A DNA stretch of 64,000 bases from Nitrosovibrio sp. Nv4 (GTDB taxonomy: Bacteria; Pseudomonadota; Gammaproteobacteria; Burkholderiales; Nitrosomonadaceae): contig NZ_OCMZ01000002.1 in NCBI RefSeq assembly GCF_900215485.1, forward strand, positions 496,001 through 560,000. The letters run 5' to 3'. Positions 4,042 to 5,136 of the stretch are shown in pieces (within the stretch, counting starts at the first letter, position 1; every line of letters begins with the position of its first letter). The position numbers and the translations under genes were made by a program. The notes beneath the pieces are model-generated. The model saw nothing but the letters and a program-made list of their open reading frames with translations. It had not been told where the DNA came from and did no database searches.

Positions 4042-4197
4042 ATGGCAACAAGACATCGAAGGTTGCGGAGCTATCCGCAAGCAGGTGTTGGTGCTTCCAG
4101 CATGCCATCATTACACGAATCAAAGATGTACAAGTTTGGCGTGCTGGGTCTTCTGGGAATAGCACTACTCTGGAATGGGCTTCAAACCTTTGCCTGA
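4042..4197 (+). CDS. 51-residue AmoC-like mini-protein (first transmembrane segment only)
   Basis: The peptide starts MATRHRRL and contains SLHESKMYKFGVLGLLGIAL followed by LWNGLQTFA and a stop. AmoC just downstream reads [20 protein letters not shown] then [11 protein letters not shown], so this peptide aligns with the AmoC N-terminus and first membrane helix and stops exactly where that helix ends. The leader AAAAGGAGTACTGAAATGGC closely matches the amoC leader AAAGGAGTATTGAAATATGG. Eight bases separate the ribosome site from the ATG. It could be a decayed duplicate of amoC, or a functional small membrane protein. No further AmoC sequence follows the stop, and nothing of known function is visible apart from this similarity. 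Confidence 0.6.
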   Translation: MATRHRRLRSYPQAGVGASSMPSLHESKMYKFGVLGLLGIALLWNGLQTFA

Positions 4198-4320
4198 CAG
4201 GCAAAGTATTTTGCAAGGATGAATGATGTAACGACTTATTCACCATTTTGATATTTATGGAGAACCAAGTCAAATCCGCTCAGGCAGTTGCGGGTAATTA
4301 ATCTAAAGGAGTATTGAAAT

Positions 4321-5136
4321 ATGGCAACAGCACTTAAAACGTCGAGCCCGGCGAAGTCGGAAGGTCGGGACTACGACATGTCGCTGTGGTACGACTCGAA
4401 GTGGTACAAATTCGGTCTCATCACCATGCTGGCGGTGGCGATATTCTGGATCTGGTATCAGCGCACGTTTGCCTACTCGCACGGGATGGACTCGATGGAG
4501 CCCGAGTTTGAGAAGGTATGGATGGGATTGTGGCGTGTACACATGATCGTGATGCCGATCTTTGCCCTGATCACCTGGGGCTGGATCTGGAAGACCCGGG
4601 ATACGAAGGAGCAGTTGGACAATCTCGATCCCAAGCTTGAGATCAAGCGCTACTTCTATTTTATGATGTGGCTGGGCGTCTATCTGTTCGGCGTTTACTG
4701 GGGCGGCAGCTTCTTTACCGAGCAGGATGCCTCCTGGCACCAGGTCATCATCCGTGACACGAGCTTCACCCCGAGTCACGTGGTGGTGTTCTATGGCTCC
4801 TTCCCGATGTACATCGTCTGCGGCGTGGCCACCTATCTGTATGCCATGACCCGTCTGCCGCTGTACGCCCGGGGCACCTCGTTCCCGCTCGTCATGGCCA
4901 TTGCCGGTCCGCTCATGATTCTGCCGAACGTAGGCTTGAACGAATGGGGCCATGCTTTCTGGTTCATGGAAGAACTCTTCAGCGCTCCGCTGCACTGGGG
5001 CTTTGTGGTACTGGGCTGGTCGGGGTTGTTTGCCGGCGGTGTTGTGGCACAGATCGTTACCCGCTACTCCAACCTGACCGACGTCGTGTGGAACGGCCAG
5101 AGCAAAACCATCCTCAACAACCGGATCGTACCGTAA
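4321..5136 (+). CDS. amoC: Ammonia monooxygenase subunit C, stand-alone copy
   Basis: AmoC is the integral membrane subunit of the copper enzyme that oxidises ammonia to hydroxylamine. At 271 residues this copy is full length. Several membrane helices are visible, and the metal-site residues Asp136, His140 (EQDASWH) and His153 (PSHVVV), conserved with particulate methane monooxygenase, are intact. An AAGGAG site lies nine bases before the ATG. No amoA or amoB follows, so this is a singleton copy. In Nitrosomonas europaea a lone amoC has been linked to sigma-E stress and recovery responses; that role is inferred here. A strong hairpin closes the transcript. This gene is the best taxonomic marker in the window. 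Confidence 0.96.

What the first reader, a model, noticed from the sequence alone, without database searches (positions are those of the whole stretch)
4042..4321. A 51-residue AmoC-like mini-gene sits directly upstream of the singleton amoC
Seen: the peptide aligns with the AmoC N-terminus through its first membrane helix (SKMYKFG... / SKWYKFG..., both ending in TFA) and stops there. The leader AAAGGAGTA(C/T)TGAAAT is shared by both genes. It is either the stub of a duplicated amoC that lost everything after TM1, or a maintained small membrane protein that might compete with or chaperone AmoC during assembly. Good ribosome site and sharp stop favour maintenance.
Basis: partly seen in the sequence, partly recalled or inferred. 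Interest (0 to 1): 0.7.

Follow-up and report, generated by a model that had tools for sequence, protein, structure and literature searches.

The report
AmoC-derived mini membrane protein gene
In some ammonia-oxidizing soil bacteria, a tiny gene that looks like a copy of just the first membrane-spanning piece of an ammonia-oxidizing enzyme subunit sits in front of a spare full copy of that subunit's gene, and comparison with relatives suggests it is kept as a real small membrane protein rather than being debris.

Summary
Window 4042-4197 (+) encodes a 51-residue peptide whose last 27 residues match the AmoC N-terminus through helix 1, with a similar leader, 123 bases before a full-length singleton amoC. 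The AmoC resemblance is real: a profile of the copies finds three Protein Data Bank sequences at E<=1, all AmoC. Five of 23 genus genomes carry it, plus Nitrosomonas Nm34; in these six genomes it is intact and in front of this amoC (broken in Nm34). The operon is LysR | mini, amoC, PmoD-like gene, HxlR, GST; the window copy is cut in the PmoD-like gene. Four other Nitrosomonas loci have GST and no amoC after the mini; their frame is shifted and three of four are broken. Spacers of the amoC-linked copies show 13 indel intervals, the mini-ORF none; helix changes stay hydrophobic (11 of 12). Against: omega is 0.64, not significantly below 1 (p=0.19), and the distribution is narrow. Best reading: a maintained single-pass membrane microprotein born by partial duplication of amoC, probably acting on AMO/AmoC assembly; translation and function are inferred. 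A decaying stub is less likely; a leader-ORF attenuator is weakly supported.

The parts
4042..4197 (+). mini-gene: 51 codons plus TGA; basic N-terminal tail, helix 24-50 in the model, residues 25-51 AmoC helix-1-like
   Evidence: ORF (listed from an upstream TTG at 3949; ATG with ribosome site at 4042); homologues; AlphaFold2 model, mean pLDDT 70.7, pTM 0.36, residues 31-40 at 92 and 41-50 at 86; AmoC match
4030..4034 (+). AGGAG ribosome-binding site of the mini-gene
   Evidence: sequence; the 22 bases before the ATG vary at 3 of 21 ungapped columns in six genomes
4188..4206 (+). palindrome CTTTGCCTGACAGGCAAAG over the mini-gene stop codon, terminator-like but weak
   Evidence: 4 terminator-like sites in 2700-5400 against a mean of 2.3 in shuffles; present in the fold of 4 of 6 amoC-linked copies; z -1.63 in the window copy
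4307..4311 (+). AGGAG ribosome-binding site of amoC, in a leader like that of the mini-gene
4321..5136 (+). singleton amoC, full length (271 aa)
   Evidence: PF04896 E 2.9e-130; TIGR03078 and NF041641 above cut-off
2990..3871 (-). LysR-type regulator, divergent from the mini-gene-amoC operon; its C-terminus differs in this copy from the other copies
   Evidence: PF00126 and PF03466; comparison of translations
3863..3964 (.). promoter/operator-like element between LysR and the mini-gene (function inferred)
   Evidence: 102 bases, 89% identical in an inverted copy at 2794-2895 upstream of gshA
2794..2895 (.). second copy of the element, upstream of gshA (1133-2779, -)
   Evidence: gshA PF04262 E 1.7e-143
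5288..5398 (+). start of the PmoD/AmoD-like gene, cut off in the window copy; open in the second copy of this locus (C3)
   Evidence: identity with C3 ends at 5398; the C3 protein matches PmoD 6cpd, E 1.8e-8

Best explanation
The mini-gene is a real coding gene for a 51-residue single-pass membrane protein that arose by partial duplication of the 5' end of an amoC (start region plus first transmembrane helix) and has been kept as the first gene of an operon: mini, amoC, PmoD/AmoD-like copper protein, HxlR regulator, glutathione S-transferase, divergent from a LysR regulator. Shown here: AmoC homology, operon context, intact frame in every amoC-linked copy found, frame shifted where the amoC block is missing, conservative helix changes. 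Inferred: it is translated, made together with the spare AmoC, inserts with its basic N-terminus in the cytoplasm, and, because it copies helix 1 of AmoC, binds the partners of that helix (AmoA/AmoB/AmoC or the assembly and quality-control machinery), so tuning assembly, replacement or turnover of AmoC under stress.
For: 5 of 23 genus genomes carry an intact copy, one of them twice; over the family (genus included) 10 of 125 genomes have a copy or relic at E<=4.1e-5. All 7 amoC-linked copies, in 6 genomes, keep exactly 51 codons. In the six-genome alignment the mini-ORF has 0 indel intervals, the two spacers 13, the LysR 5' end 2; 13 indels placed at random over spacers and ORF would miss the ORF with P 0.005. 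No substitution reconstructed in frame goes to or from a stop. At hydrophobic positions of codons 32-49, 11 of 12 nonsynonymous changes stay hydrophobic (expected 0.45, p 0.001) and none goes to D, E, K, R, H, N, Q, P or stop (expected 0.41, p 0.002). N-terminal net charge is +5 or +6 in the six amoC-linked sequences and 0 in the GST-linked one that is open. At the four GST-linked loci without amoC all copies are shifted relative to the amoC-linked frame, three with premature stops. Of nine genomes with a close HxlR orthologue (82% identity or more), six have mini plus amoC there and three have neither in the stretch fetched.
Against: omega is 0.64 and not different from 1 (LRT p 0.19); 15 synonymous to 23 nonsynonymous changes, p 0.083. 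Over ten pairs of five genomes mini pN is 0.026 to 0.086 against 0.005 to 0.032 for the adjacent amoC, about three times as fast. The helix half varies as much as the spacers (25 of 87 against 71 of 220 columns, p 0.59), and the strongest conservation, codons 1-22 (8 of 66, p 0.0009 against spacers), lies outside the AmoC-like part and is at nucleotide level. In Nm34 the mini is intact although amoC is broken. The helix test uses parsimony events that are not fully independent, and I chose its residue class and range after seeing the changes; indel intervals are alignment-dependent and not proven to be separate events. Only six genomes. No expression or interaction data.
Confidence: 0.55

Rival explanations
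1. Decaying stub: a partial copy of amoC that lost everything after helix 1 and is not yet destroyed in a young lineage.
For: omega not significantly below 1; helix half varies like spacer DNA; narrow distribution; relics exist in four Nitrosomonas and a broken start fragment 7.6 kb away in G001; the mini survives in Nm34 beside a broken amoC.
Against: No indel in the ORF against 13 intervals in the spacers; 7 of 7 amoC-linked copies intact though 71 of 220 spacer columns vary; hydrophobic helix kept; no trace of amoC after the stop.
Confidence: 0.25
2. Leader ORF: translation of the mini-ORF, whose stop codon lies in a hairpin followed by T-rich DNA, controls read-through into amoC; the product itself matters little.
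For: Palindrome 4188-4206 over the stop codon flagged as terminator-like; codons 1-22 conserved at nucleotide level.
Against: The longest T run in the tail is 4; the hairpin is missing from the fold in 2 of 6 amoC-linked copies and no z-score is below -1.7; in the consensus fold only 2 of 78 pairs have a compensatory change; it does not explain why the helix stays hydrophobic or why it resembles AmoC.
Confidence: 0.15

Closest known systems
AmoC / PmoC (PF04896, TIGR03078, NF041641)
   Same: Helix-1 sequence (ESK-YKFG...W..Q.TFA), the MAT start and, in this operon, the leader
   Different: 51 residues instead of about 270, one helix, no copper-ligand region, no PF04896, TIGR03078 or NF041641 match of its own
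Singleton (monocistronic) AmoC of ammonia-oxidizing bacteria, such as AmoC3 of Nitrosomonas europaea (known to me here only from passages in PMC4940428 and PMC5960693)
   Same: An extra amoC outside amoCAB; proposed to act in recovery from stress, here beside glutathione genes
   Different: No mini-gene is mentioned in the passages I saw; the same holds for N. briensis C-128, reported to have three amoC singletons (PMC4964001, passages)
Small single-pass subunits of bacterial membrane complexes such as CydX and KdpF (recalled, from no call)
   Same: Works-like comparison only: tiny membrane protein encoded in the operon of the complex it serves
   Different: As far as I recall those are not copies of a helix of their own partner; no homology was tested

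Membership tests
AmoC/PmoC (PF04896) | Match to the family profile over its cut-off | tested here: not met
   Peptide: no PF04896, TIGR03078 or NF041641 match at E<=1; the adjacent amoC passes all three
AmoC/PmoC (PF04896) | Sequence homology to the AmoC N-terminus and helix 1 | tested here: met
   PDB profile search returns only AmoC at E<=1; shuffles 0 of 5000; in the own genome all seven other profile matches (E 2.3e-6 to 1.6e-5) lie on amoC genes
AmoC/PmoC (PF04896) | Asp-His-His copper-site residues in the membrane core (motif recalled) | tested here: not met
   The peptide stops before that region; the adjacent amoC has DASWH...PSH in its translation
Maintained protein-coding gene | Frame kept in relatives beyond chance | tested here: met
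   0 against 13 indel intervals, P 0.005; six genomes only
Maintained protein-coding gene | Nonsynonymous rate below synonymous | tested here: inconclusive
   omega 0.64, p 0.19; 15 S, 23 N, p 0.083
Maintained protein-coding gene | Peptide or mRNA detected | not testable with these tools
   No expression data held

The most novel reading that the evidence does not exclude
A helix-1 mimic of AmoC acts as a regulatory or accessory subunit of ammonia monooxygenase: made with a spare AmoC and a PmoD-like copper protein, possibly under LysR control, it occupies or guards the site where helix 1 of AmoC docks, and so controls exchange of AmoC in damaged enzyme.
Probability: 0.2. Interest if true: 0.7.

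Novelty: new variant of a known kind. Interest (0 to 1): 0.5.

Why it matters
AMO starts nitrification, and active preparations of AMO and pMMO are persistently hard to obtain, perhaps for want of unknown components (PMC6189053, passage). A natural helix-1-only AmoC, kept beside a spare amoC and a PmoD-like gene, would give a handle on how AmoC is assembled or replaced. In the listings of the seven searches I made of a CC-licensed paper library I saw no title or abstract start that names such a gene; most subscription papers are not held, so this is weak evidence that it is not in print.

Tried and rejected
Attenuator: the consensus fold of the region from leader to amoC start gave 78 pairs, two with a compensatory change, and the stop-codon hairpin is missing from the fold of two of six copies; kept only as a rival. 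Remnant of a longer amoC after the stop: none seen. Plasmid records: one weak partial hit in an unrelated genus, E 0.6. Order-level profile search (300 genomes drawn from a larger group, E<=0.001): matches in 6 genomes, all in the own family. I did not rest on the alternative tree with omega 0.47, p 0.0175, because its log-likelihood is about 15 units worse. The GST-linked NEU_AOB_4 copy is open over 51 codons only through two opposite shifts, so I did not count it as maintained; it is one of seven rows of alignment A1 used. My amoA pattern was poor, so I make no count of operon against singleton amoC copies. The pooled pairwise pN/pS of 0.40 counts branches repeatedly and was replaced. The scan of genome contigs did not list G001 or G112, so it is not complete.

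Full report
What is there. The window holds, on the + strand, an ORF of 51 codons (4042-4197) behind AAAAGGAGTACTGAA, 123 bases before amoC (4321-5136), itself behind AAAGGAGTATTGAAAT. The frame is open further upstream to a TTG at 3949, but the ATG with the ribosome site is at 4042. The AmoC is complete (PF04896 E 2.9e-130; NF041641 above cut-off).

Is it AmoC-like? Yes. Residues 25-51 align with AmoC 24-51; 0 of 5000 composition-keeping shuffles score as high, and 0 of 500 do in the DNA comparison. A profile of seven copies, run against 177,635 PDB sequences, gives three matches at E<=1, all bacterial AMO subunit C. No AmoC remnant is seen after the stop. The N-terminal part is basic (net +5 or +6 over residues 1-31) and, apart from its MAT start, not AmoC-like. 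AlphaFold2 gives one helix, 24-50, and a low-confidence tail (mean pLDDT 70.7, pTM 0.36). The leader resembles that of the adjacent amoC far more than the other amoC leaders of the own genome, but two amoC leaders of other genus members come close (L161, L165), so a strictly local tandem duplication is likely, not proven.

Who has it? The own genome has two copies with the same peptide (window and C3). Of 23 genomes of the genus, five have it (G000, G001, G017, G018, G021); of 125 in the family (the genus included), ten have a copy or relic at E<=4.1e-5. The scan of genome contigs found seven loci: Nitrosospira Nl5 and Nsp11, Nitrosovibrio Nv6, Nitrosomonas Nm34, Nm84, N. supralitoralis APG5 and a MAG, NEU_AOB_4. 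By equal contig lengths these are G017, G021, G018, G103, G049, G111 and G087. G001 has the length (3,210,113) that the N. briensis C-128 paper gives (PMC4964001, passages seen), so I take it for that strain.

Gene order. In own C3, G001, G017, G018, G021 and Nm34 the order is LysR(-) | mini, amoC, PmoD-like, HxlR, GST(+); the domains are from Pfam, the PmoD-like identity from 6cpd, E 1.8e-8. The window copy is cut in the PmoD-like gene. In Nm84, APG5, NEU_AOB_4 and G112 LysR is followed by a mini relic and GST, the amoC to HxlR block being absent; in G046, G056 and G098 LysR is followed by GST and no mini is found. In G002 a C-terminal piece of the PmoD-like gene (47 residues), HxlR and GST remain, without mini or amoC; G045 and G092 keep HxlR and GST. 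Thus of nine genomes with a close HxlR orthologue (82% or more), mini and amoC occur together in six and are both missing from the stretch fetched in three. In Nm34 amoC has three in-frame stops and a frameshift while the mini is intact; the PmoD-like gene and HxlR each show one stop there, apparently near the C-terminus since most of each frame is open. Lesions at the amoC rate would leave a 153-base gene intact about half the time (my arithmetic), so Nm34 says little either way.

Is it maintained? For: seven of seven amoC-linked copies keep 51 codons; no indel interval in the ORF against 13 in the two spacers (P 0.005 if placed at random); no change to or from a stop among 38 (chance 0.22); helix changes stay hydrophobic in 11 of 12 (p 0.001; residue class and range were set after seeing the changes). 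At the four loci without amoC the alignment puts an extra base near codon 9 in all four copies; three are broken and the fourth is back in frame by an opposite shift, with changed residues and no net N-terminal charge. Against: omega 0.64, p 0.19; 15 synonymous to 23 nonsynonymous, p 0.083, against p 0.42 and 0.67 in the other two frames; mini pN about three times that of amoC over ten pairs of five genomes; the helix half varies like spacer DNA, and the best-conserved part is codons 1-22, where synonymous changes are few too (3 S, 6 N). The six genomes are the whole sample of amoC-linked copies.

How it may work. A 102-base element upstream of gshA is repeated, 89% identical, between LysR and the mini-gene, and faces both genes alike. 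With the GST at the end of the operon this places the mini-gene and amoC in what looks like a LysR-governed glutathione response; binding was not tested. Singleton AmoC is proposed to take part in recovery from stress by stabilizing AMO in N. europaea (PMC4940428, passage seen, citing Berube and Stahl 2012, which is not held), and AmoC is said to be thought of as a chaperone too (PMC5960693, passage seen). [quoted passage not shown] The simplest functional reading is a helix-1 mimic made with spare AmoC that acts in assembly or turnover of AMO. That step is inference; homology, context and frame conservation are the shown part.

Noticed in passing
2794-2895 and 3863-3964: A 102-base element upstream of gshA is repeated, inverted, 89% identical, between LysR and the mini-gene; other genomes of both genera also hold a second, inverted copy near LysR. 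A possible LysR operator shared by gshA and the amoC/GST operon.
   Followed up: partly
2928-5398: 2471 bases (end of LysR to the start of the PmoD-like gene) are 99.4% identical to C3 of the same genome; the window copy is cut in the PmoD-like gene and its LysR ends in other residues than the C3 copy.
   Followed up: partly
5691-6089: Part of a serine recombinase (PF00239, E 9.1e-12, the end of the domain) lies shortly after the cut PmoD-like gene.
   Followed up: no
L118 (G001:C1:493025-493086): A second, broken start of the mini-gene with its leader lies beside LysR-like DNA upstream of gshA in G001.
   Followed up: partly
L121 (G103, Nitrosomonas Nm34): The operon looks partly decayed: amoC is broken and the PmoD-like gene and HxlR each have one stop, while LysR, the mini-gene and GST are open. 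Its closeness to the Nitrosospira copies (86% DNA identity) may mean transfer between genera; not tested.
   Followed up: partly
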